Shown one piece after another: positions 2,300-64,000 of a stretch of DNA of 64,000 nt; position 1 is the stretch's first letter; each line of letters starts with the position of its first letter. The notes beneath the pieces were generated by a model that was given only the letters and a program-made list of their open reading frames with translations, searched no databases and was not told where the DNA came from. Location of the stretch: contig OX439045.1 of NCBI GenBank assembly GCA_949317995.1, positions 44,225,693 through 44,289,692 on the forward strand. The letters run 5' to 3'. Source of the DNA: Acholoe squamosa (taxonomy: Eukaryota; Annelida; Polychaeta; Phyllodocida; Polynoidae). A program made the translations under genes and the position numbers.

Positions 2300-5200
2300 C
2301 TTTCTTGGAATAAGAAGAAGATTATTCTATATATTAACCTACCGTGGCAGTTTGGATCTAATCCATCATCACAGTCTGCTATTTCTACCCTAGGTTCCTC
2401 ATCATATGGTGGGCAGGGCTTGCCATTGTGATCTGGCCTTTGACAGTTTCTGATCCGTATCCACGTGCCCTTTGCACAATCCGTGACGGATGCTGTACAC
2501 TTTCCCCAGTTGTTCCACTCTTTCAAGTAGCCATCTATTGGACACGGAACTGTGTTGCACTCAGCAGACTGTGTCGAGTTTCCTGAAAATACAACAACAA
2601 CACAAAGAACATTAATAATAAAATGATAGATATATAAGACCAATGAAATAGTTAATGAATTATCAAATGAACGAAAAGAATGAACACATGGTGGTTGATC
2701 AATGATTTTATATATGGTACACAAAGGGACTTGCTATATATATGCCACTGAAAATGATCTTAGATTTCATCTCTGCAATTTGAGAATTCAAATATACAAT
2801 GCAATATAGAACTATAATGTAATGTCATAATAACATTTAAACGATCTAAAGTCAAATAAATACCCACCCACACATTCCAGACCGCCATGATAAGGTCCGG
2901 CACAGTGCCGCACCTTACGGTAGACTGCTCCACCGCAGGTGCTGGGGCAGTTGGACCAGGCAGACCAAGGCGTCCAATGCCCATCAATTGGAGAGGCTGA
3001 AAGGAAAGCATCTGTGAGGGTTATTCATAACATAAGTGATAGTGAAAATTACCAGAGTGAAGCTGTGCCCTTGGGATGACTCTGGTAGCAAACTACGAGT
3101 TATACCATATCGGTCTGCCTCCAGAGTTCAAGAACATAACCCAAAAATTACTCAAGTAGGAATTATCAGAGCTAGGACATTTCCTTCAAATTACCCTTGT
3201 CAGGTTTTTGTCCAAGAAGACTCTGGTATAAGAAGTGTCATAGTCAATGTAATTTACAAAGGTAAAAAAAAAAGAAATGTGTCCTCATCATATCTCTAGT
3301 AATTCTTACCTTACAAAATTTTAAGACTTCTTTACATGGTTATGACAAGCACGACATTTTTAAATTCAGGGACATCTAAAGATATTTTTTTTGTGAAGGG
3401 ATAATTTTTGGGGATATTGAAATTTTGAAAAGGATAAGGACCTCGCAGCTCATGACTCTGTGTCAGTGCTTTGTGAATTGATGTCAATCATTATTAGAAT
3501 CAATTTAGTGCAGCCAAAATGATACGTGATGGATTGTTATATCATAGGTTTCCAGTTAGGCATCTGGATACTTACCTATGCACTTGCATGGGACATGGCT
3601 CCATTGTCCTTCTGCGCTGCATATAGCCTCATGACTGCATGAAGGGTCCTCATGCTCATATTGATCATCACACGTAAAATTCACCCTAGTAAGACTCCTA
3701 ACAAAATGATGGGACAACTTTCCATTTTCGATGTCGGGGATTCTTTCACAGTCCTCTGTTGTTAGAGAATAGAAAATAAAAGAAATAGTCATTCACTGTC
3801 TGATCAATGAGGCAGAATTCAGACCATCATAGTTCATTCAACGCATAAATATGAATAAATCATGAACGTTGAGATCCTAATGAGTGTTAGAGTTTGAGTT
3901 TAACAGAGAAAGTTGAAGAAGAAATGATAGACTGAAATAATAAGATTCATATGAACGGACCTCTACATCAGCAGAACCAATACCAACCTATTGTGAATTC
4001 GATAAAAGAAAATAAATCTTTTGTGTTATTACATTAATCGCATGTGTTATCCATAATACTTATCCATGGCATACTTAGACAGTAAGGCAGAGGGGTCCAA
4101 GTGCCATTAGCGAGGCATTCTATCATCTCATTCTCTTGTAGCTGAGAGTACCCTTGTTTGCACTGAAAACGTATTCTCCTTCCATAGGGCGATTCTTTTA
4201 TCTCATCAAAACTGTCAAGGGATGGGTGCACATTGGGCCTTGGACACGTTATGGCTGTGCATGCAGTTGAAAGAAAAAAGATGTGTAAAGTGATAAATCG
4301 ATGTACAATTGATTATACTATTCCCGATAGAAAATAGCAGACTTGCAGATAAACATTTACATGAAGAGATAAGATGCCGGGTAGGGACTACATGTATACT
4401 AAAACATATACTCATAAAAACGTGGCTATTTCAAATATTAACTAATGAACATGCTTATCTGAGGATATCAATATCATCAACATAAGCCTTTTGATAGATT
4501 TATCAACTTACGTTTACACTCGACTGGTGGTGATAGTTTAGCTTCTGATGTACAATGCACTGCTGGTGACGTAACATTAAGGACATATCCTTCATCACAG
4601 ATGACGGATTTGCTGTCCCCGTACTTGAGATTTACACCTTCTGCCACGTTGGAATAACGCTTTATGAGCTGCGGGCAGGACTTAGCTAAATGAAAAAAAA
4701 AAAAAACATGGCTTAATTCATCAAAATCTTCAAATCGGAAAATGGTATAAGAATTACCAGTAAGACCATCGAAACTTACGTTCACATACGAGGTTGACCT
4801 TGTGTAAGATACCGTGTTCATCGCATCTGACGTCAATGTAATTTTTTATACCTCCCGCGGAGTACCCGACCTTACAATAAGCCTTACGAAGTGTATTTGC
4901 CTCCAGGACCAAGCCGTGTAGATCTGTGTGGGGGAGGTCAAGGTCGGGGCATCTGATCTCTGAATTAGACAATATAAATATGCAATATACATTAGGTAAA
5001 AAAAAAGATTAACCATTCAACATGGATTTACCTGAATTCACACTCCACTAGTCAAAGTGAACAAAGCTTCATATACGAAACAGGTCTTCCCAAAAAAGAT
5101 GTCAATGTGTAGATACAAATAAATATGTATCTTCCAATGAAATTTCGTTTTGATTTTAGTCCCTATACCCGTTTTAAGACCTGATACGTCCAGGGGTAAT

Positions 5201-25342: not shown

Positions 25343-28300
25343 AGAATGTTATGTATCAAAAACACCAAAGTGTAACGTTATCACTAGATAACAAGTATGA
25401 CATGGACATGTTGAAGTTTAATGCTGCCTATTTGATATAGGACCAACCATGGAGTTCACTTTTATCTGTCAAAGAGACTGTGTCTCATACCTTTTAACCA
25501 ACAAGAAGTTTTTTTATATGACTAGGAAACTGGCGAGAATGCGCCTTGGGGTTTTTTTTAGTACTGGTTTTGGTCACCAGGGGGCAGTATATGGGTAAAA
25601 CACTGAAAAATATGCTAAAAAAAGCTTTAGCCCAGTTTTTGATAAGGAATCCAGTGGTATGCTTAAAATCATTCCATCTCCACTGAAAATGTTCCATTTT
25701 CAGAACGTTATTTGCCGTGGAAACATAGAAAATTGGTAGATAAGGCAATTTCTGGCTGCCATAGAAACCACTTCCCTATTCCAATTGGGAATTTTTACCA
25801 CAAACCTTTTTTGAAATTCCTTCAGGAACCCAGAACCAAAACCAGAGCTCAAAAATTCCCTCTAGAACCAATTTTATGACAAAAACATAACATTTCTTTG
25901 GTTATTTTTCCACAAAACTGTATTTTTTTGCATTATTAGTGTTTGTGATAGGATATATTGCATTTAGAGCTTATTTCCTATTTTCAGTTTTACACACCAA
26001 CCTATGTTTGAAAAGCAATTTCAGCATAACTACGGGGGGGAATTTTAGCTCACGATATCTCATTTTAAAGCCAAAGACTTATACATTAAAAAGTCATTTC
26101 ACCCCAGGAGGCATGTTTTCCCTCACCTGGCCACATATTGCAGTGTTTCCTATGCACCCAAACTGTGTACAGATTTGTCTGTATTTGTCATTAACCTAAC
26201 TGAGAAGAAAGTTTCTTTTCTTGACTTCACCTTTGAACATCAAAATATTTCTTGAGTCCTTGTTCATTGACTAGAGAAAAATAAAAGCACTCAAAATAGC
26301 CTATCACGGCATCACCTCCTCTGGAACAAATCACAGTTCCTGGGGTAAAATAGTTAAAATAAAATTCTCCTTTGCAACAATCGGAAATTCTTGGATGAAA
26401 TAGTTCAAATAAAATATTCCCACTCAAAGGGGAGTAACCTATTCAACAAAAAATGAAACAAAACAAATACACTGTTTCGAGCGATTTAGCACCCGACTCT
26501 GCTGGGAATTAGATTCCACACTATGAGTATCAAGTCCTTACACAAAGTATCTTTTTTTGTAAGTTGCTTGCTGCATTGTGGCCGGGAGCACAGCGACGGT
26601 AGCAACTAAACTATGTTTTTGGGGAGGAGCGGTGTGTTGTGCACCCTTCTGTTCGCTACCACAAAGTGTCAAGTTTGACTTTAAGCATCCACTATAGGTA
26701 CCATGACAACCAATGAGCTGGCCAATCAGAGGGCAGCTCATTGTTCACGTGACCTATACAAATATCCAGATGGAGGCTCTACTCCTATATTATGATTGGA
26801 GAGTGACTATCTCATTGGTAAAGTAATTTTTCAACTTAAAATATTTTCCTAGGTTGCTCAGTTTTCTGGGGGTATAGTTGACTCCTGGGGGTAGTACTCC
26901 GGGGGTTCAAGCCCACCTTAAGGGCAGGGCTTATACTTTCTACAGCAGTGGTCTTAGTGTGGTAGGACAATGTCCAAATAACAATAGTGTTAATTAATTC
27001 CACGATCAGAAGGCGGATCTGGGCTGCTAATAGCTTTGTTTATCAGAGCGGTTGTTTTTGGACCAGATTGGCTCTCTGATTTTTTAGTCAAGTAGGTTTA
27101 AACCCAGAGGAGTGATGGTGCAAAGAAGATGCATCCATCTTCTTTCCTCTTGATTCCTTTCAAGCTTCCCCTCCCTTGAGTCATGAGGGTTTTTGATGAA
27201 GCTAAGAATGGATATTATGGGGCCATCCTCCCAGCATTCTTCTGGTGTTCTAGTGTTGTCTGGGCAGGATCTAAACATAATATCAATATCAAACATGTGG
27301 CCTTTAAATCTCACAAGCAGCTTATTCTCTGTCTGGCCTACGTGTTGGATGCCACAGTGTTGACATGTCATAAATTAGGTTGGCAGTTTGGCAGCTGACA
27401 TTGAATAATGTTCTATATCTCTTGCCGTCACGTAGAGAATAAATATAACCACTCTTATCGAGTTTTGGGCAATAATTGCACATGTTAGGGCTTTTGCAAG
27501 GATTGCGAATCATATGTGGTAATTTGGGACGTTCAGGTGTGGTGCTGGTGGAGGCTCAGACCAGTTCATCACCTAGTGATTTATTTGGACGTTTCCCAAA
27601 TATGAGTTTTGCACCATGGTGTCCCCTTGTTGATTTTGCTTTTAGCATGAGATCCCAGTTTGGCTGTCTGTGGGTTTACAGTAAAGGACCTTGACGTCCA
27701 GGAAATTAATTTCTGTTCTGGAATGTTCCACAGTGAATTTTATGGTTTGATGGCAGTTGTTTAAGTAATTTACAAATGCCAGTAGGGATTCTTCTCCCTG
27801 GGTCCAAATCAGGAAGATGTCATCTATGAATCTTTTCCAGATCAGAGGTTGAATTTGGTAAGGATATACAAATTTGTCTTCGAAACTTCCTATAAAAATG
27901 TTTGCATAGGAGGACCCGTGCTACTTTAGTTCCCATTTAGAAATGGATGTCTATTCTGTCTTAGAATTTCCATAGCTGCCTTTATACCCTCATCTGTAGG
28001 GATGTTCGTATAAAGGCTGGTCACATCAAGAGTTGCTAGAATAGAATTAGAAGGAATGGTTAAATCTTTTATTTGATTTAAGAAGTCACTACTATCCCTG
28101 AGATAAGAAGGAAGGGTAGTGACTAGAGGTTGTAGGAAGTGATCTACTAATTGTGCGATTCTTTCTGTCGGGCAGTCATTTGCTGACACAATGGGTCTGC
28201 CTGGAGGGGGGAGCTTGTTTTTATGTATTTTAGGGAGTAGATACAATTTAGCTGTTCTAGGCCTGGGGATTATTAGGTAATCTTCTGCTTCTTTACTTAA

Positions 28301-31300
28301 TTCGCCAGATTTACCATATCCGAGACTTTGGTTTTTACCAACTTTTGGTGGAAACTGGTAAGATATGCTTCCTGCAACCTGTAGAAATCTCTGTCATTTA
28401 GTTGGCGGAGACCCTCTTCGATATAGACTGATCGGTTTTGTATAACGACTGCTGAACCTTTATCTGCCTTTTTAATGATTATGTTAGTGTTGGTAGATAA
28501 ACTGAGTTTAGCCTCTTTCTCGGATCTGGTTAAATTGGACCGATGATAAGGGGTTTTTGGAATATTTTCTAATTGTGTCTGATTTAAAAGACACATGTGT
28601 TCCAAGATTGGTGGGCCTGGGGGTTTCCAGAGAGAGGGATTTTTGAATTTGTTATCTTGGAATGGTGCCTTAATTTCCCGGGGTGGGTGTGGTGGTGGTG
28701 GTGGCTCCACTGGCGGAGGGTCAGTGGCACTCTTGTCTTTAGTTTTAAATTTTGATATTGCCACTTCTCTTTTAATACTGAGATGGAGTTTGGCTAGGTC
28801 TTCAAATAAGATACCTGGATCTGGGGGTCGAGGGGTGCCTACAAAAGTGAGGCCCTTCTGAAGGAGGCTATACTCGGCATCTGTTAATTGATGATCAGAG
28901 AGATTGACAACACCTGAATGGTTATCATTAGGGATGTTATTATTGTCATCACTGAGAGCATTACAATTTTGGTTTCTATGTTGTTGTAATATTGGTAGAT
29001 AATTTATATTATACACTGAGAGACAAGCTAGGAAATCAATGTCATTGAACAAATCTAGACTGTACTGTTCAAAGTATGATGTAAAGTCATTATTTTCCGG
29101 GGCTTGTGCTTTACAGTCAGTTACTGAAGGCGGCTGAGAAGTTGTCTCAGTTGGTCTACCTCGTCCCGACTCAGGTTGGTCAGGTTGTTGCCACGGTTGT
29201 TGCCCTGTGGGGCTGTTTGCTGTTGGTTGCGGTTGTTGGATTGTTGCAGTGGCTGCGTCGGGCACTGCTGATTGGCGCGGCGACGATTGTGTGGGGAGTT
29301 TGGTGAATTGTCCTGTCTCCACTATGTTTTCGGTTTCCGTCATTTTGTGAGTGATGTCACGATCACCGTGTGACGCAATATGTTACGTCACACATCCCGG
29401 GGTTGCTGGGGAGTAGACTGAGTATCGTCTCTCCACCGTGACAGAGCTGCTTTAATAGTGGCTAGCCAGGGAGCAGCTGCCAGGGACAAACTTGGGCTCT
29501 GTGCTCGGCGCTCCCTTTCACATAGCATCACAACACTGGGGCCCGGCACATATTTTGAGTTGATGTTAGGCCGTTTTTTTTTTTTTTTGCCTATGCCCGA
29601 CTAGATTTTTGGAGTATTTTACCAAAAACATTGGCTCTTCAAGAAAAATAAAAGTAGTCACTCATAAACACATCAGATTTTGCCCTTCATATTCGGAAAT
29701 TTCTCAATATTTCTCCCGAAAATGCCTAAAAATATGGTATTACCAGGCCTTTTTTTTTTTTTTCCTCTACCCAACCAAAGTTGGAGGTGAAAAAATCCTG
29801 TGATCCAAGTAATCAAAATCAGGCCATTCTACTGTTCTAATCTCTTATTTATTGATACTCTATGGCCATCCCTCTTATTACATCATTCCCTCTAAATTAC
29901 AAAGTCATGAGTGCTACAGATTTGGAGAATTTCAATATTGAATGGTGAGCATAAAATTGTTCCTGGCATAGTCTCACATTATGGCTACCCTCCCAAGGCT
30001 ATGGTGATGGTCTCATAGAAGTAATAGGTTCTGCACTATAATTTAATATAGCGTAAAATGCGACAGCACCCATTGGAACATGTTTATTTTCTAAAAATCA
30101 CCCCAGAATTAATAGATACATCCTTCCTTCATAATATAGGCTGACTTAAAATATGAATTGACCACGAATATTTTGAGCACTGGACTATCGTGTAAAAACA
30201 CCCTGATTCTGCCTAAATCTGCACTGAATAAAATGCAGATTCACTATTTCCAATCTAACCTTTGAAAAAATGGGTAAGCACTTTGATAAATGCCCTCCTG
30301 GTATTTTATCTAAAGCAGCAAATGTTCAACAACATGTGTAGTGGCTTTATATTTATTGGCATTATTTTCAACATGGTTATTGACCATTCACTGTGCCTGC
30401 AGTATTCACTTCTGACCACAATCATATATGACTTCCGGTTTTCTGCGGGATTTCCTTCACTGAGACCTGATATCACTAAACGACCGTCAGCAGTGGAGCT
30501 GTGAGGGCAGACAGACCCTGGTTTGTTTCCCGCGTCAAACAATGTGGGTGCCTTAGTGACAGGCTCCCGGGAAGGGGGAGGGGTCGTCCCTTAGAAATAG
30601 GCTAGGCTACATGGGATGGGCATGAACCTTACTCAGGTCCCTCATCCTGCCCCCCCTCTCTAGCTCAAGAAAAATGGGGCTTGGACTCTCCTATCTGTGG
30701 TCCTTGCCACATTTTTCTTCTTAATTTTGCTCTTCCTCAAGGGCATAAAAAATGTACTGAGTGATGTGCATCATCACTTTCTTTTTATTCTGTGGCAAAA
30801 GTTCTTGCAGGTGAGGAACAAGGGTTCTCACCCATTTTGTGTCGTCACACTCGGATGTATCCTCTCTAGCAGAGTGACACTGCACCCTCAGTGACTTGGG
30901 CTATAGCTGATTGTGTTTTTTCCACCAGAGACTGTTGAACGTCTTTTTTACCGATTAAATTTCTTTAGCTCATTAGTCCGCTTGTAGACTGCATCCTGCT
31001 GTATGATCCATTCAGTATTGTCAATATTCAATTTCCCTTTTTTTTTTGGCTTCAATCTCCTTTTTTCTGTTTGGCCTCCATCTCCAGCCTTTTCTTCCTG
31101 GCATCAGAGGCTGGATAAGAAATAGTGGGCTTCTATGCTGCTACGTCTTCTTTACTCTTCCTACTTTGGCCTTTAAGTGGAGCCTTTCCCCCAGCCTTTC
31201 TCACTCCAGAACAAGATGGTACCTCTTTGCTCTGTTTAGATTTCATTTGTTGCCTAGGCGACCGACGTGGAGATGAAACCTCTTTAAAATCATTGTCATT

Positions 31301-43300: not shown

Positions 43301-46300
43301 TTCCTGTCTATTACGAATCTAAATGGAATGTTTTGAATCCAAAAACAAGGCTTAAACAAGAGAATCAGGGTTCTCAGAAAAATATGTTGCCATGGCAACT
43401 AAAATCATATTCCAAACAAAAAAAAATGTCAATAAATAGAATGATTCATGGAGATTCATACACTGAAAAAAAGTATGTAGATACCATTTCTAGATCCAAA
43501 GCTATGCCCAAAAGTATGGAAAGTTTTGGCCATTTTTTAAATGATTACTGAAATCATTATGCTAATTAAATGCCTGATTTAAGCAAAACAATGAAAGACA
43601 GAGCTTATTCGCCATATCGATACAGTTATGCCATTCCATTTTTGTAAAGCAATATCTCCAAGACCAGACAGGCTATCTGCAAGTGTTATGCCTCATTTTA
43701 AAGCTGAGTACTGAGTTCAAATGTCACATTTTACCTCAGAGGACCCTTTCCCCTCATCTCTCCACAACTGTTGTTCAGAGCAATATAATCACTGTTGTCT
43801 AGAACATTTGAAGGCTATTAAGATCCCACATAGCGATCTAGGGCTCCGAAATCTCTGCGACCTTTCACCTGTTACAACCCCCCCCCCCCACCCTATCACC
43901 AAAGAGGTTGAACATTATTGAACTTTGAAGGTCATGGCGTCGATCGAGTAGCGCACGGCAATGCAGCTCCCCCATATTTAGGATTTATAGCTGTTTAAAC
44001 TGACTGAATGATACTCCCTTGGGACTACCATACCATGAACACCCTTGGAACCTATGGGTATGTAAAATTAAACTGATTTTGCTTTTGTTCAGCCACATTT
44101 TGTGATTGAAAGCAAGTCACCACTTCATGGTCCAGTGAGCAAGCTCAGGTGTGTTTATACTGCACCTACCCATACCTGTACATAGCAACTGGGTAAACAC
44201 TGTAGTGTGTCAGTGCTGTAGTGTGTCAGTGCTGTGTTGGCCTAATATATACTGTGACTGAATGATACTCTCTTCTACACACTGAAGGAGCTAAACACTC
44301 AGTGATCATTGATACTGCATAAACTGGGTATGTAAAGTGTGTTTTAGTACCTATTGGAGGAGATTCATTGTCTTAGTTCTACTGAAGTTAGACCCACACA
44401 GGTAGAGTCCCTAGTGACTGCTGCTAGGCCAAGGTAAAAATTCTACCATGCACTATAAGGTGGATAGTAGACGTGGGGGCAGGCAATTCAACCCTCACCA
44501 CTCTCACAACATGTCTCACCGTAATGGATATCAGGACTTGGAGGAAGACCAGTGGCCTGCACCATTTATTAAGCCTGACATGAGACATAAGGTCAGTGAT
44601 TCAAGGAAAAGGGAGAGGCAGTCAAGTGATGAGTCCTCACCAACATCAGGTAGCTATGTTAGCTCATATAACGCACAGAAGCCGCTTCCTAAGAAAAGCT
44701 ATTGCCCAAGTAATTCATTGTCAAATCACCCCAATCCAGATAGGTGATCTCTACCTACATCAGCGCAATCACATGACAAATCTAGCACAGTAGGTGAATC
44801 GGCAATGGAGAATCACTTGAAAGAGATAAAAGAAATGATCTCAAGGAGTGACGTGAATATTTCTGGTGAAATTCAAAATCTACGTCAACGTATGGACATT
44901 GAGAAGATGGGGTATGAACAGCGTTTTGATGACCTAGAAAGAAATCAAGACGAGGGAATTAGGGCTACAATGCGTGAAGTGGACAAACTGAGAAATCAAT
45001 TTGCACAGAGTCAACAACAGGTAAATATACTTGAATCAGAGCTGAGAGAAACAATTAGGAAACTGTCATATGCTGGTGTTGCTGACCCAGATACTGATTC
45101 CCGTTTTCACTCACCTCGTCAATTTAATATAATTATCGATGGACTCGATGAGGACATAGAAGGTGATGCATATGATCATGCACTCTACTTACTTATGGAC
45201 ATTGGTATTGAACTTGACCCTAGTGAATTAAAGTTCGTAACACGCATGAACACATCATCTCCCAATCAGAAATGCAGACCTATACTAGTATGTTTCACCA
45301 CTGCATGGAGGCGTGATGTTTGCCTAAAATACAAGTCTGAGCTTGACAGTATTGACAAGTATAAAAAGAAGGTGTTTATCAATGCTGATGAAGATCCCAC
45401 CACCAGAAGGGTCAAAGGAATTGTGAGGAAGATAGGATGGTATTGTAGAGAGGTGGTGAAGTGTGAGGTAACCATGAAAGGCACTCGCATATTGATTGAA
45501 GGAGTGCTTTATGATGGGCACAATCCACACAGGATCCCTGACAGGTATAAACCCGATGATCTGCATTATGAGAATTTGGATAGGCAAGACTACAGAAGTG
45601 ATGAGGTGAATCATCGTGGGAGAGACATCATTTGAGTGGGGGCTCGTAATAGATGGGATAACACAAGTGATGATAGAATGGTGAAGGATCTGACTAAAAG
45701 ATACCGGCCACATGATTCACATGACAGACGACTTGATAAACATGTATCCCATAATGGCAATGGCAGTAACGAAATAAGACGACCTCAAAAGCAACCGACT
45801 AGAGAGAAAAAAGGCGATCGCAATTCAAATAGTTATGTTCACCGAGACCGCTCCCGTGACAACATTGGGCATAAGCCTTATACCCATTCAAAGGAACGCC
45901 ATCAGCAAGACGGGAGCATTTCACAGAGCCGCCACCTAGTGGATAAGAAGAATACTAGCAGTCAGGAGAGAGGAAATCGTGACAAGTCGCCATCTGGAGG
46001 ATCATCCGAGAATTGGTGGAGACTAAGCCCTAAGCCCGATAGTTATAGACACGCCCATGATGATGAAAATTCATCTCTAAAGCAGAAGGAAAATGAGAAG
46101 AGCCAACCTTCAGTGAAGTCAACCTTCAAAGAGAGATTAAATATAGCCATAGAACGAGCTGAAGGAGGTGAGTTATGTCAACGTCTGACGAATTCAGGAA
46201 TGACATTCTGTGGCGCCAAATGCTTCCTAAGTAATCTCTACCCCTGCCATATTCATCACGATGGGGTAGATTTTCATAGTTCGGAGCAACTATACCAGTG

Positions 46301-49300
46301 GATAAAGTGCTGTGAGCATAATGACCCAACTCGAGCCGATCAAGTATTAGACACAATCACCGGCCTAGAGGCTAAAAGAGCCACACATGGCATGAGAGAA
46401 TCCGAAGAGTGAAAGAGCTCTACACGTCTAACTGCAATGAGAATTGCTGTATCTAAAAAATTCGTCCAAGATAAAGAGTTAAAAAGGCAGCTGATAACTC
46501 TGGGGGATGTCAATATAATTGAAGCCACGATGGAGGATTATTGGGGAGGCTTTGGATGTTATGGTGATCCAGTCTATGACACCGGATTATACACAGGCAA
46601 AAACAATCTGGGCAGACTGTTAACTGATCTTCGCACAGCCTCACCAACAAAGAAGGAATGAAAGGCAGCGCTGGAAAGCATGCTAAAGATGCGATGGAGA
46701 GCGAGGCTGCCGCTGACGCGCTACTTGAAAGTGAGGACTCTGATATTCCAGCGGATGATACAGACAACGCTGAATCCTCCGTCGAGCATATCTATGAAGT
46801 TGACAAAGATCAACGACAGTAAGTCTTATGACCTACTGCCACCACTTGTGAATTCATATACGGTATGACAGTTGAGATCTACCATCATGATCTCTATCTT
46901 ATGCATCATGTGTTGTGAATACATGACATACTATGGTGTCTCTTCATGGAAGTACGAGATGCTGTTTTTTAACCTATGTGACTATTACCTGTATCAATGT
47001 CCTGGAGCTGTGAAAACAACTTTAAAATGGTTTCAGCCAACCAAACAGAGTCCAGACAGCTAAGACATTTCCATTGTTCCGCACACTTCTTTAATTACAA
47101 TACATCAGTTCTTCAAGTGATGTCATTAGATATCTAAGAAACTATTTTATATCGTTATTGAATTTAAATTCCTAGCAACAGAATTCTTCGGAATTTCTTC
47201 GAGAGTTAAATCATCACCCTGCTTATAGATACAGGACCCTATAAACTTTAATTTTGCACTGTCTTATTAAAACATCATTTAATATGAATTGTTTCTTCCA
47301 GGATTATAGTTTGTTATCTCACATAGTACGATTATCTTATGGTTAAGGCAGTGTTTATCATTATTATATGAATTTTACTAGCATGACGGGGGGAGCCTAC
47401 CCAACAGAGTTACCGACAGAGTATTTCTATCTGGATTGCCCAATTGTTTTGTTAAGTACCCTTAAGGCCAAGTTAAATTGTGCAGAGTATATCCTTGGGT
47501 TTTATATCTACTGGTTTCTGCACTGAAATTAATTTTCGGTAATTTGAGTAGCTGATGCAACTTTGAATTAACTGATTGATATACACTTTGATAGGTGATT
47601 ATTTTGTTTTCAATTCATTCCCGATACATGTATTGATATAGTTATCTTTAAGTGATTGTGTTGTCCTGTTTGACCTTTTCCTGACTGCAATGTAAATTGT
47701 TAGTCTGTTAGTTTAAGTATACCTCCAGCTTTTGTTACTGTGGGGACTGTATCTTGCACATAGAGCCACTACTTTACTTATTCGTAACGGGTTGCTCTTG
47801 GCTTCTTGGCCCTCATCATTGTATTGAGTGCCATTAGTCGCTCCTATTGCACATTTCTCTGTAAATCATGTTCTGTTTGTTGTGCGCTCGATTAGGTATG
47901 TTTACTTTTGTTCTGAAAGGTAGGAGTAACAGGGTCAGGTTGAAAGCGACCTATATCACTAATGCTTCTTAACCCTTTGCCTACCGGTGTATAGGACAGT
48001 GCATATGACATAACAGCCATACTCTTCACATGTAATGCACCCCCACAGCCGGCCATTTTTGAGAATAATGCATCATGTTCACTTTAGCAGTACAGTACAT
48101 AGTTAAAGCAAAGTTGGCTTGTAAAGAAACACCTAGAATATGATTATTAATGATATTTCTTATGTCTTGCCAAAAATTGTACTTCATAGCATCATTATTT
48201 TACCATCAAATCTAAGAAAAACTTTTCAGAAAGAAAATAATGAATAGTGCATCAATGCACTATTGGCGTTTCCCATGGTAGTGCATTAATGCACTACCTG
48301 CACCAGTAACGGTAGTGCATTAATGCACTATCTGTAGGCAAAGGGTTAAGTATGACTAGCCACTACTCTTGTGACAAAATCAATAGCTTGAAGGGACTGA
48401 AACTAATTACTATGAATGTACAAAGTCTCAATGATAAGGTTTTGGACTTACGACACTCCGATCTTGGTTTTGATTACATCTGCGTGACGGAGACCTGGTT
48501 AGACAGACGTGATCAAACTCATAATGTCGATTTGAATAATATGAGACTGTATAGGAAGGATCGCCTAAATTGCCTTAGGAAGAGTGGTGGAGTAGGTTGT
48601 TATGTTAATAATAAGTATGTAGATTACACTTTCGGCCATGCAGCTTTAACAGAAAGCAATAAAGACATAGAATGTATTGGATTAATAACTAAATTTCCAA
48701 ATCAGAAGCACCGTGTGATATTGTCTGTATACCGCCCCCCTAATGGTAATGTAAGGTTATGTTATAAAAAATTGAGTGAAATGTTTAAGCATCCAGACAT
48801 ACGCAGGATGGAGGTCTGGATCCTTGGGGATTTTAATGTTAATTCTGCAGTTAGAACAAGTAGTAAATATAAAAGTCTAACATCTTTTCTAAGGAAAAAC
48901 AAGTTGAAATATTTACGTACTAGATCAACGTATTATCCTACAAGGGGCAGATCTACTTTGGACCATATTTATTGTAACTCTCCGCATATTTCCACAAATG
49001 GTCTGCTTGACTACAAATTTGGTGATCATTTCCCTGTATTTGCTATAAAGAAACAAAGAAGAATAGAGGGGTGTCAAACTCGTTCAATTACTGGTAGATC
49101 ATATAAGAATTTTGATCAAAATGCTTTGAATAATTATGTGAATAATGCTGCCCTCACTGAAAACCTTATGCTTTCTCCAGGTGAACTTTATAGTGAATTT
49201 GTAAATTGCATCCGTGTGTACCTGGATAGACATCACCCAGTTAAGGAAATGGCCATTAATATGGATGCACCTACTGGTTTTAATCAGAATCTGTCTTTTT

Positions 49301-52300
49301 TGACTGCTAAGAAAAAAAGATTTCTTAAGAAACTCCGGGGTTACAGAGGTCAGGATGCTAATCCATTCAGAGCCAAAATTAGAGACCTGGACAAACAAAA
49401 AATAAGCTGGTCTTGAACAGACAAAAAGAGATAACCAGGAATCTTAATAAATACAAAACGGACCCAAGGCGTTTTTGGAATGTAATAAGTAGTTTATGGA
49501 AGGGACCTCGCACTGAGATAAAAATGTCATTAATAAATGAGCATGGTACTGGCATCCCTGACCTTGAGATTCCTGACTTTGTAAATAAATATTATACTTG
49601 TATTGGTCCTAACCTTGCGAATCTGATACCAGTTGTCAGTAACACCGACCATCAATGGATTACTGACCTTATACTTTCCCATGTCCCTGAACGTGACCAG
49701 TTGTTTGAATTGTTGCCTATTGATTTATTAACCTGCACTAATATTATTAACGGTATCAACTCTGCAAAATCATTGAGTATTCAACACATCAGAGCAAATG
49801 TGGTGAAAAACGTGTTGTTACATATCCCACATATACTACTTCAAATAATTAATGGTTCAATCACTAATAGTGTCATACCGGAGATGTTCAAAATAGCTAA
49901 TGTAATACCGTTGCCAAAGTCAGGCGATTTGCTGAATATCTCAAACTGGCGCCCAGTGAGTCAACTCAATATTGTCTCGAAACTAATTGAGAAATCAATC
50001 CACCGCCAGTTAATTAGTTATTTACTGGATAATGATTTTATATCTAAAAGACAGTTTGGCTTTGTTCCAGGTAGATCTACTAATGGTGCTATTTATATTT
50101 TGACTCAAGATCTATTTGAAGGATTTAACAGGGGGAAGTGCTCGGCTGTAGTCTTCCTAGATCTGAGAAAGGCTTTTGATACGGTCGACCACTCCCTCCT
50201 CCTAGGAAGACTTAGGAATTTGCATTTATCTGTACAGTGTGTATCCTGGTTTAATTCTTATCTTAAGGACAGAAAGCAATATGCTACTGCCAATGGGCGT
50301 GTATCTGCTGAAGAGGCTGTAACGTGTGGCGTCCCGCAAGGGTCTGTGTTAGGTCCGTTATTATTTATAATATATATTGATAGTATAGTATTGGTTATCA
50401 AATCCTGCAAATTCTGTTTGTACGCTGATGATCTCGCTATCTATGTCAATGATACCGACCCCAATCATGTACTAAGGAAATTACAGTCTGATCTGGATAG
50501 TATCAGTAAATGGTGTAAATTGTTCAAGCTTACTATCAATAATGAAAAAACAAAGTTGTTATGGTGTGCAAGTGATTTACTTAATGCCAGACACAATTTG
50601 AGTATAATGAGTGCTGAACTGGATGGTAAGCGCCTTGAAGTGGTTGATGAATTCAATTACCTTGGTGTTATCATTGATCGTGGTCTTAATTTTCGGAGAA
50701 ACAACGAAAAAATAATATCTAGTTTCCGCCACAAGATGTACCAATTAAGACAGTTAAGGAAATTTGTCGATAATAAGCTGTGTCTGACTTTATACAAACA
50801 AATGGTTCTACCTGTGCTGGAACATGCAAGTTTTCTACATGAAAGTGGTCCAAAATCCAGTGTTGGCCGCTTACAACTTATGCAGAATCATTGCCTACGG
50901 TTATGTCTTCGAATCTTTAATACTCGGGATATATCTATATACGATCACCATGTTAGAACTTACATGAAAATGCTAAAGGTTAGACGTGATAAGAACTTAT
51001 TATCTATGATATATGATGTTTCTTATGATCCAAACTGTGTCAAACTCCCTGCCAGGAACTTGCGCGGCAATGTTGAAAAACAGTTAAAGGTATCCAGATC
51101 TAGGTGTTTGACGTATGATAAGTCACCACTGTACAGGGGATGTGTCCTTTGGGACAAATTGGATGCAAATACTCAGCAGATAGTCAGTAAAAGAGAATTC
51201 ATGAACAAAATCTGAATGTATTTGGTGTATAACCGTCACTTGAGAGACTACGCAATTATTTTTGAAAGATGTAATATACATGCTGCCTGCGGATAATCGA
51301 CTTGTGCAAATCATGGTGATACATACAGCCCCTAAGAGGCTTTAGTTATGTCTTTAGTAATATCGTAATGATCTACACCCAAAATGATGCCTGCCTGATG
51401 TAACTTTGTACAACCTGATTGAGCGCTACACTATTTCTTTCCTGTTGCCGTGTTTTGGCCGATCTGAAAAACGTACATGTATGATTTCTGCCAATAAACT
51501 TGTTAAAACTCAAACTCATTCACCCCCCCCCTAACTTCCCTCTTGTTGATGAGTGATCACCCCCGAGCTAGTATAAAATCTAAGGTCGAGACTTACATTG
51601 CGATCTTGGATTCCCCAATATCTAGGATTACCAACCTATCGCGATTTTGAGCTAGTTCCCAAAATACAACTTAGAAAAATTGTATAGAACACAAGTACAC
51701 TTGTGCATTCTCTTATGATATTATATCATTTGGTTTATGCCTTGATTGACGTTTAGTATTCTGTGCATCACTTATTTTCTGTCCTGAAATAGGAAACTTT
51801 ACTTTTGTTCTATGCTCCTCCGGCAGCTTTCTCTGTTCTGGTGGTCGACATGACATAGTCTCCAGAATCACGGAAGTAAGCAAGTCACAGACATTTTGAA
51901 GGCCTAGATCACAATGTGGAATTCAACCTTTACAAAACGAGCAAATTCAGCATAATATGTCTTAAATAGAATGACACCAAAATTGACTCAATATTGGTCT
52001 AACCCCACATATGGATAATGAGCAAGAAGCGGTAGTGCATCCAAAGAAAATCAGTGTACATCTTGAACTTATTTAGAATATCCTAAGCGAGAAAATATGT
52101 TGTCATAGACTTACGGTCATCTCCATCGGGAATGGTTATGACAACCATGATTACTCCGACAATATTTTCTAATCTGGTTGACCACCAGGAGGGCGCTCCG
52201 GGTGCTTCCTGTCCCGTCTGTAGACAATTGGTACCTGGGTCCCATGTTTCCTTTACTGCATCTACCGCCTTATGAGCATCCTCAGGAGTACCAAGCCATT

Positions 52301-63718: not shown

Positions 63719-64000
63719 TCAGGCTTCAGTTTCAGGAGATCCAGGCGGTCTTGCCTGGTTCGGTAGTCTGTCTGGTGTAGCTTGTTGTTGAGTAGGGTTG
63801 TCAAGTAAGCCATCGTCAGTAGCAGGAGGCTCGTCATCATCTACCATATCATCCCGATCTCCATCCTCATCACCCTCTAAGGGGGGTGGTTCGTCCTCTT
63901 CTGTCGATGCATCGAGGTTGGGATCAGTTTCCCTCTGAAGCTCTCTACGTAGCTTAGTCAGAATGGTGCCCAGCAGATTCTTAGCCTTTAGCTTATCATA
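63719..64000 (-). CDS. LINE 2 ORF1, C-terminal part (runs off window)
   Basis: Open frame from the window edge to TGA at 63,719-63,721, 93 codons visible. Begins YDKLKAKNLLGTILTKLRRE (helical), then very acidic (EGDEDGDRDDMVDDDEPP) and ends SPETEA. Position upstream of ORF2 on the same strand suggests LINE ORF1; family domain lies outside the window. Confidence 0.6.
   Translation of the reverse strand, partial: YDKLKAKNLLGTILTKLRRELQRETDPNLDASTEEDEPPPLEGDEDGDRDDMVDDDEPPATDDGLLDNPTQQQATPDRLPNQARPPGSPETEA

What the first reader, a model, noticed from the sequence alone, without database searches (positions are those of the whole stretch)
44448..46661. Retrotransposon ORF1 fused to a NADAR (ADP-ribose-processing) domain
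The frame joins a coiled coil and L1-ORF1p-like RRM region, typical of LINE RNA-binding proteins, to a C-terminal NADAR/YbiA-like domain. Its hallmark blocks are all readable: [60 protein letters not shown] family members are known to hydrolyse ADP-ribose adducts, including on guanine bases. A mobile element carrying such an eraser on its RNA-binding protein could undo host ADP-ribosylation of its RNA or cDNA, a counter-defence in a genome-parasite conflict. The fusion is seen directly; the function is inference. I do not know of a described LINE clade with this fusion.
Basis: partly seen in the sequence, partly recalled or inferred. Interest (0 to 1): 0.87.

Follow-up and report, generated by a model that had tools for sequence, protein, structure and literature searches.

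The report
Jumping gene carrying ADP-ribose eraser domain
A family of still-young jumping genes carries, fused to its RNA-packaging protein, an enzyme domain known elsewhere to strip ADP-ribose off DNA and RNA bases; the copy first noticed is broken, but intact copies and related families share the domain, which makes a role in the element's life cycle testable.

Summary
The fusion is real and a family trait, not a one-off. Window frame 44448-46661 carries a NADAR domain (PF08719, 67.9 bits with the stop as X; fold matches NADAR 8bau and YbiA) behind a coiled-coil/RRM-like part, upstream of LINE endonuclease and RT. This copy is dead: three in-frame TGA stops, a shifted C-terminus, a MITE-like insert, a split ORF2. 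Other copies are not: 9 of 9 fetched (the best-scoring) carry NADAR in frame, and 16 ORF1/ORF2 pairs are open in both. A second LINE in the window also has a NADAR ORF1 (67.8 bits). Genome-wide, 150 of 150 scored NADAR matches pass the cut-off; 23 of 23 fetched NADAR-centred LINE loci have ORF2 frames downstream. NADAR occurs in at least two RT lineages. Catalytic E, K/R and E are kept in 30 of 30 rows, under purifying selection. Novelty is reduced: PMC12477816 reported apparent NADAR in ORF1 of oyster Tx1 LINEs. New here: non-L1-like LINEs, abundance, intactness, constraint. Best mechanism: an RNP-tethered ADP-ribosyl hydrolase; substrate and counter-defence are inferred.

The parts
43929..51215 (+). 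Element 1: LINE copy from its 5' end to the ORF2 stop (3' end not fixed)
   Evidence: 5' end at 43929 shared by 6 of 9 fetched copies; identity 98.0-98.8%
44448..46661 (+). ORF1 frame of element 1, broken by three in-frame TGA stops
   Evidence: frames of 721-801 aa in 9 other copies
44805..45090 (+). Probable coiled-coil part of ORF1 (approximate limits)
   Evidence: weak coil-type matches only; by eye
45105..45563 (+). RRM/CTD-like part of ORF1
   Evidence: alignment A3 of 14 LINE sequences; L1 ORF1p best but not significant
46194..46640 (+). NADAR domain
   Evidence: PF08719 67.9 bits; model pLDDT 82.8; Foldseek 8bau E=4e-7 and 2b3w E=2.5e-6
46284..46286 (+). Glu codon equivalent to E43 of the oomycete NADAR
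   Evidence: role of E43 from PMC11543638 section 12
46305..46307 (+). Lys codon equivalent to K50
46521..46523 (+). Glu codon equivalent to E125, the YbiA-subfamily mark
46658..46822 (+). Acidic C-terminal tail, out of frame in the window copy, in frame with NADAR in intact copies
47969..48349 (+). MITE-like insert with terminal inverted repeats, TTAA on both sides
   Evidence: ORF1-ORF2 distance 4635 in the window against 4269-4271 in 8 of 10 other + strand pairs
48352..49416 (+). ORF2, endonuclease part
   Evidence: PF14529 and PF03372
49383..51215 (+). ORF2, reverse transcriptase part, in another frame
   Evidence: PF00078 134.9 bits
60254..63085 (-). Element 2: open ORF2 (943 aa, EN and RT) of a second NADAR LINE
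63719..64000 (-). Element 2: C-terminal end of its ORF1 (NADAR end plus acidic tail); the 512-aa frame continues beyond the window
   Evidence: these 93 aa alone match no Pfam family, the whole frame in L009 gives NADAR 67.8 bits

Best explanation
These are non-LTR retrotransposons whose ORF1 protein is a coiled-coil / RRM-like / NADAR fusion. ORF1 proteins of LINEs coat the element's RNA (general knowledge). The C-terminal NADAR most likely works there as an ADP-ribosyl N-glycosidase, removing ADP-ribose from the element's own RNA, cDNA or target DNA (guanine is the known NADAR substrate) so that reverse transcription is not blocked. Shown: the fusion, its intact and recent copies, three kept catalytic residues, purifying selection, co-inheritance with the RT in the families that the trees resolve. 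Inferred: activity, nucleic-acid substrate, action in cis on the RNP, and a host writer as opponent.
For: NADAR by profile and fold. E43 and E125 equivalents in 30 of 30, and K (23) or R (7) at K50 in 30 of 30 LINE-type rows, not all independent, with 20 representatives of mean identity 30%. Selection: L023-L033 dN 0.17 with synonymous sites saturated, L045-L046 dN 0.24 against pS 0.89, L018 pairs omega 0.19-0.38. NADAR in frame in 9 of 9 other element-1 copies fetched. Upstream of ORF2 frames in 23 of 23 NADAR-centred LINE loci, and in 27 pairs found by crossing two 150-row lists, with 0 in the reverse order. NADARs of bacteria, a phage and an oomycete reverse guanine ADP-ribosylation (PMC11543638, PMC11125620 passages).
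Against: No activity or substrate data. The pyrophosphate-contact W133 is replaced in 11 of 30 rows (M, F, Y, H), so binding may differ between families. R at K50 kept activity in vitro in E. coli C7 NADAR but failed to rescue from DarT1 (PMC11543638 section 12). PMC11125620 (passages) notes that NADARs outside DarT1 operons did not act efficiently in vivo, so in vitro activity need not mean that role. Phage NADARs have been proposed to target soluble ADP-ribose derivatives instead (PMC9503650 passages). In close pairs NADAR is not more constrained than the ORF1 part before it (lower dN in 2 of 5). No host ADP-ribosyltransferase was looked for here.
Confidence: 0.5

Rival explanations
1. NADAR in ORF1 is an active hydrolase, but on soluble ADP-ribose derivatives or RNA-repair by-products, not on the element's nucleic acid.
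For: Argued for phage NADARs in PMC9503650 (passages). Same kept residues.
Against: Fusion to the ORF1 protein in at least two RT lineages favours a substrate within the RNP; a diffusible target would not need the tether.
Confidence: 0.2
2. NADAR is kept as a binding or structural module of the RNP (reader of ADP-ribose, or RNA-protein contact) without needed catalysis.
For: A paper on a nematode trans-splicing protein holds 'NADAR domain' 25 times (PMC9303266, search listing and start of abstract only). W133 is not conserved in these rows.
Against: Both catalytic Glu are invariant and Lys/Arg is kept in 30 of 30 rows, which a scaffold does not need.
Confidence: 0.18
3. NADAR counters ADP-ribosylation of proteins by DNA-damage PARPs at the target-primed reverse transcription nick.
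For: PARP activity at nicks is established knowledge (recalled); a search listing shows PARP-related factors in LINE-1 restriction literature (listing only).
Against: In the passages read NADARs act on guanine-ADP-ribose; I saw no protein substrate.
Confidence: 0.09
4. One-off chimera of a dead LINE with a host NADAR gene fragment.
For: The window copy is broken, and two bacterial-like NADAR genes exist in the genome.
Against: 9 of 9 other copies fetched carry it in frame; 4 of 4 loci chosen without regard to NADAR carry it (L045, L046, L158 over Pfam's cut-off; L047 in part, 31.8 bits, under it); the NADAR tree puts the bacterial-like genes apart from the element-1 NADAR.
Confidence: 0.01

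Closest known systems
Tx1 LINEs of Crassostrea gigas with apparent YbiA-family NADAR in ORF1 (PMC12477816, passages only)
   Same: NADAR in the ORF1 protein of a LINE of an invertebrate.
   Different: There a short remark about Tx1 LINEs. The window element's RT is no closer to L1 ORF2p (49-51 bits) than to R2 (50-51 bits for its best R2 rows), while a separate group here (L018) scores 230-233 bits to L1 ORF2p. Oyster sequences could not be compared here.
[quoted passage not shown]
   Same: NADAR captured by a retrotransposon.
   Different: LTR element, NADAR in Pol, another host lineage.
Esterase (SGNH) ORF1 proteins of LINEs (PMC3905857 passages; PMC4120745 section 7)
   Same: An enzyme domain in a LINE ORF1 protein.
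   Different: Different enzyme; PMC3905857 states that the esterase ORF1ps in RepBase had no RRM and were unique among ORF1ps in having an enzymatic function.
NADAR domains in invertebrate positive-strand RNA virus polyproteins (PMC9503650 passages; fold matches to such replicases)
   Same: NADAR taken up by a selfish RNA-based replicator and joined to its own proteins.
   Different: Viruses, joined to replicase rather than to the RNA-packaging protein.
DarT1-NADAR toxin-antitoxin systems (PMC11543638, passages and section 12)
   Same: Fold and catalytic E and K; an eraser paired with an ADP-ribosylation threat.
   Different: No transferase was seen among the element's frames; the LINE domains have the YbiA-type Glu, not the DarT1-type Asp.

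Membership tests
NADAR superfamily (PF08719) | Profile match over the curated cut-off | tested here: met
   67.9 bits against 35.1 with X at the stop; open copy L036 68.6 bits
NADAR superfamily (PF08719) | YbiA-like fold | tested here: met
   pLDDT 82.8; only 8bau and 2b3w under E 0.001 in the PDB library
NADAR superfamily (PF08719) | Catalytic E43, K50, and E125 (YbiA subfamily) equivalents | tested here: met
NADAR superfamily (PF08719) | ADP-ribosyl hydrolase activity | not testable with these tools
   no assay
LINE (non-LTR retrotransposon) | ORF1 plus ORF2 with AP-type endonuclease and RT | tested here: met
LINE (non-LTR retrotransposon) | Dispersed copies with a common 5' end | tested here: met
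   (6 of 9 begin at 43929)
LINE (non-LTR retrotransposon) | Target-site duplication and 3' tail | not tested
   3' flanks of other copies not fetched
L1-type (type II) ORF1: coiled coil, RRM, CTD | RRM and CTD folds | tested here: inconclusive
   L1 ORF1p E 0.1-0.2; no Pfam; model failed
L1/Tx1 LINEs (lineage of the oyster report) | RT closest to L1 ORF2p | tested here: not met
   Window element: 49-51 bits L1, up to 51 bits R2, 58 bits GsI-IIC. L018 group: 233 bits L1, 71 bits R2. No Tx1 reference was at hand.
Jockey superfamily (CR1/L2/Jockey) | RT in that clade | tested here: inconclusive
   [17 protein letters not shown] motif (recalled as jockey-type) and a starred branch against L018 and L1; no reference RTs at hand, and the window element's own place among the 16 rows is unresolved with a long-branch warning

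The most novel reading that the evidence does not exclude
In this genome the NADAR-bearing ORF1 is the prevailing LINE ORF1 type, carried since before the split of many LINE families and taken up or exchanged across two or three RT lineages; it is a retrotransposon-encoded eraser kept by a long conflict with a host guanine ADP-ribosyltransferase (of the kind clams have in CARP-1), making base ADP-ribosylation an anti-transposon defence not yet described.
Probability: 0.2. Interest if true: 0.9.

Novelty: new variant of a known kind. Interest (0 to 1): 0.64.

Why it matters
What NADARs do in animals is an open question (PMC11125620 passages). A retrotransposon that keeps a NADAR active site intact across deep divergence, joined to the protein that coats its RNA, says that ADP-ribose on or near that RNP costs the element something. 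That gives a concrete place to look for base ADP-ribosylation in an animal, and adds a second enzyme class to LINE ORF1 proteins beside the SGNH esterases.

Tried and rejected
Protein database: ORF1 with stops as X and NADAR alone found nothing; an alignment of 11 ORF1 proteins found four ORF1-NADAR relatives and one NADAR-less ORF1-like protein in other deposited assemblies, among the 7991 candidates scored. One-off chimera: rejected (see rivals). A single NADAR capture by all these LINEs: not decided; the tree sets the L018-group NADAR on the bacterial side, but one clade is not rejected (p-AU 0.31). RRM by structure prediction: failed. Viral-contig relatives of the element-1 NADAR by DNA pattern: none confirmed. 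The C-terminal 93 aa of element 2's ORF1 alone: no Pfam match; the whole frame matches. The WIN1-L036 dN/dS figure is invalid (the aligner dropped the stop sign) and is not used. The 'Nadar' hit in PMC12832006 is a university name.

Rows dropped before counts: leave out L003/L012 (NADAR split by a stop), L035 (the window copy itself, entered once as WIN1) and L010, L011, L013-L016 (the same places as L001, L002, L004, L006-L008, fetched twice). Searches also leave out near-copies L021, L026, L030, L031, L037-L040, L042-L044 and a partial second NADAR in L018. L047 (N-terminal half missing) is in none of the three. The 30 rows include WIN1, two further element-1 copies, near-copies of the L017 and L018 groups, L005 (ORF2 not fetched) and P0001-P0004 (no genome context). 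The RT tree leaves out L026 and an unrelated upstream RT in L031; broken ORF2s (L012, L015, L022) and L033 gave no row.

Full report
Observation. Pfam NADAR matches the two halves on either side of a stop (16.7 and 41.5 bits) and scores 67.9 bits against a cut-off of 35.1 when the stop is read as X. An AlphaFold model of the domain (25-row alignment with NADARs from prokaryote genomes and viral contigs; TGA read as alanine) has pLDDT 82.8. Under E 0.001 Foldseek finds in the PDB only the oomycete NADAR with ADP-ribose (8bau) and E. coli YbiA (2b3w), and in the viral library 43 models, many named NADAR. The frame, however, is not open: TGA at 44745, 45633 and 46410 interrupt it.

What the element is. 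The 5' end at 43929 is shared by 6 of 9 fetched copies (the other three begin later); identity is 98.0-98.8%. After ORF1 come a spacer, a MITE-like insert with TTAA flanks, then endonuclease and RT frames, which in this copy lie in two frames near 49400. The ORF1-ORF2 distance is 4635 here and 4269-4271 in 8 of the 10 other + strand pairs (4167 and 3778 in the other two), which fits an insert private to this copy. So the window copy is a recent but dead member of a LINE family.

The family is young and in good part intact. The genome holding the window is available (1,481 Mb, unnamed). The ORF1 upstream part has 41 matches of at least 93% identity, the window copy and partial matches included (list); 19 of 41 have a frame of at least 768 aa without a stop in the match. 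ORF2 RT has 72 matches of 94-100%, 38 of 72 with a 958-960 aa frame and no stop in the match. Of the 41, 28 have an ORF2 match 3-8 kb downstream on the same strand, 16 with both frames open. These are lower bounds: only the best candidates are scored. The nine other copies whose DNA I hold are the best-scoring ones. In 9 of 9 NADAR is in frame with the RRM motif; L038 lacks six residues inside NADAR and L044 the last motif.

It is not one family. PF08719 over the genome gave 3224 first-look candidates; 150 were scored and 150 of 150 passed the cut-off, 143 without a stop inside the match. I fetched 26 regions. One was the window's own neighbour (L009). Two were bacterial-like NADAR genes (L010, L011) with no EN or RT match in 8 kb. 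The other 23, chosen by me for spread and not at random, have LINE ORF2 frames downstream on the same strand in 23 of 23 (in L033 only the endonuclease lies within the cut region). Crossing the 150 NADAR hits with the 150 best of 39,499 RT candidates gives 27 pairs with RT 1-8 kb downstream and 0 upstream. Four places chosen without regard to NADAR also carry it, 4 of 4: L045, L046 and L047 picked by RT score, and L158 picked by RRM likeness, frame length and a paired RT. Pfam scores are 57.9, 60.5, 31.8 (partial, under the cut-off) and 80.6 bits. The second LINE of the window has it too (L009, 67.8 bits).

RT lineages. Against PDB sequences the L018-group RT scores 233 bits to human L1 ORF2p and 71 to R2, the L017 group 92 and 71, the window element 50 and 51. 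The RT tree separates the L018 group and L1 from the other 16 rows by a starred branch. The L017 group hangs among those 16 on a very long branch, unresolved, and so does the window element, with a long-branch warning. NADAR is thus in at least two RT lineages, perhaps three. Without Repbase references the names Tx1 (L018) and jockey-like (the rest) remain inferences. Where the RT tree is resolved, the NADAR tree shows the same groups: element 2/L009 with L024; L020 with L023; L019 with L004/L013; L006/L014 with L008/L016 (this NADAR pair is not starred); and the last six families together. So the domain has descended with these elements. Across lineages the L018-group NADAR falls with bacterial and viral-contig NADARs, which would mean a second capture, but one clade of all LINE NADARs is not rejected (p-AU 0.31); YbiA, a long branch, falls among the others.

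Constraint. In 30 LINE-type rows (not all independent) the equivalents of E43 and E125 are Glu in 30 of 30 and that of K50 is Lys (23) or Arg (7); W133 is kept in 19 of 30. With near-copies and the two bacterial-like genes the counts are 37 of 37, 29 K + 8 R, 37 of 37 and 27 of 37. The roles of these residues are from PMC11543638 section 12, where K-to-R kept activity in vitro but not rescue from DarT1. Twenty representatives average 30% identity (20-77%). By Nei-Gojobori counting, L023-L033 has dN 0.17 with pS 0.98, L045-L046 dN 0.24 with pS 0.89, L036-L158 dN 0.40 with pS 0.84. Low-divergence pairs of the L018 group give omega 0.19-0.38, of the L017 group 0.12 and 0.50, the latter on three changes. 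NADAR had lower dN than the ORF1 part before it in 8 of 9 diverged pairs (exception L006-L008), but only in 2 of 5 close pairs.

Mechanism. Shown: an intact, selected NADAR joined to the ORF1 protein. From named literature: NADARs hydrolyse ADP-ribose on guanine (PMC11543638, PMC11125620); ADP-ribosylation of the N2 of guanine in DNA was found in six edible clams (CARP-1; PMC11209040 passages). Inferred: that the LINE domain does the same within its RNP and thereby escapes a host modification. I give 0.8 that the domain is an active hydrolase of some ADP-ribose conjugate, 0.5 that the substrate is nucleic acid of the RNP, 0.2 for a host base-ADP-ribosylation defence. The host organism was not identified, so the clam link is only a lead.

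Known before. I searched an open-licence library for NADAR with retrotransposon (104 papers, 20 listed, many of them apparently author or place names), 'NADAR domain' (15 papers), DUF1768 (6), YbiA with LINE terms (15 listed of 11,860) and NADAR with transposable (14). Most of these I saw as listings only. Of the papers I opened, one links NADAR with retrotransposons: PMC12477816 (passages), which describes NADAR in Gypsy Pol of Ectocarpus and apparent NADAR in ORF1 of several C. gigas Tx1 LINEs and suggests RNA processing. Three opened NADAR papers hold no 'transpos' term (PMC11125620, PMC11543638, PMC9503650). The survey of Jockey-superfamily ORF1s (PMC4120745: abstract, section 7, term search) and three mollusc LINE papers (PMC11203168, PMC10294476, PMC9115989: term searches and passages) hold no 'NADAR'. 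Most subscription papers are not in that library. So the fusion as such is known; its presence in non-L1-like LINEs, in more than one RT lineage of one genome, in intact young families, and its constrained active site are, as far as these searches go, new.

Noticed in passing
L034:2910-3722, L016:4025-4786, L158:1235-1912, L019:2936-4105 (between ORF1 and ORF2): Extra frames with weak GDSL/SGNH hydrolase matches (E 5e-6 to 0.0025, all under Pfam's cut-off); none in L014, L013, L033. Some of these LINEs may carry two accessory enzymes.
   Followed up: partly
L017:5739-7925 (minus): ORF1 whose NADAR is followed in the same frame by an SGNH-looking segment (by eye; SASA E 0.067).
   Followed up: no
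G000:C17:9901769-9902218 and C14:682108-682554 (L001/L010, L002/L011): Two NADAR genes without EN or RT match nearby; the first is up to 61% identical to Paenibacillus NADARs, the second 65% identical to the first; perhaps laterally acquired.
   Followed up: partly
window 47969-48349: MITE-like insert with TTAA flanks and three copies (75-100% alike) of a palindromic 24-mer.
   Followed up: partly
P0001-P0004 (other deposited assemblies): ORF1-NADAR relatives outside this genome, 33-49% identical to the L027 ORF1 over the aligned part; hosts not named.
   Followed up: partly
window 27926-29382 (minus): Two overlapping long frames that look Penelope-like by eye; not searched.
   Followed up: no
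L047:573-1481 (minus): Frame joining a piece of a LINE endonuclease to the C-terminal part of NADAR; a rearranged copy.
   Followed up: no
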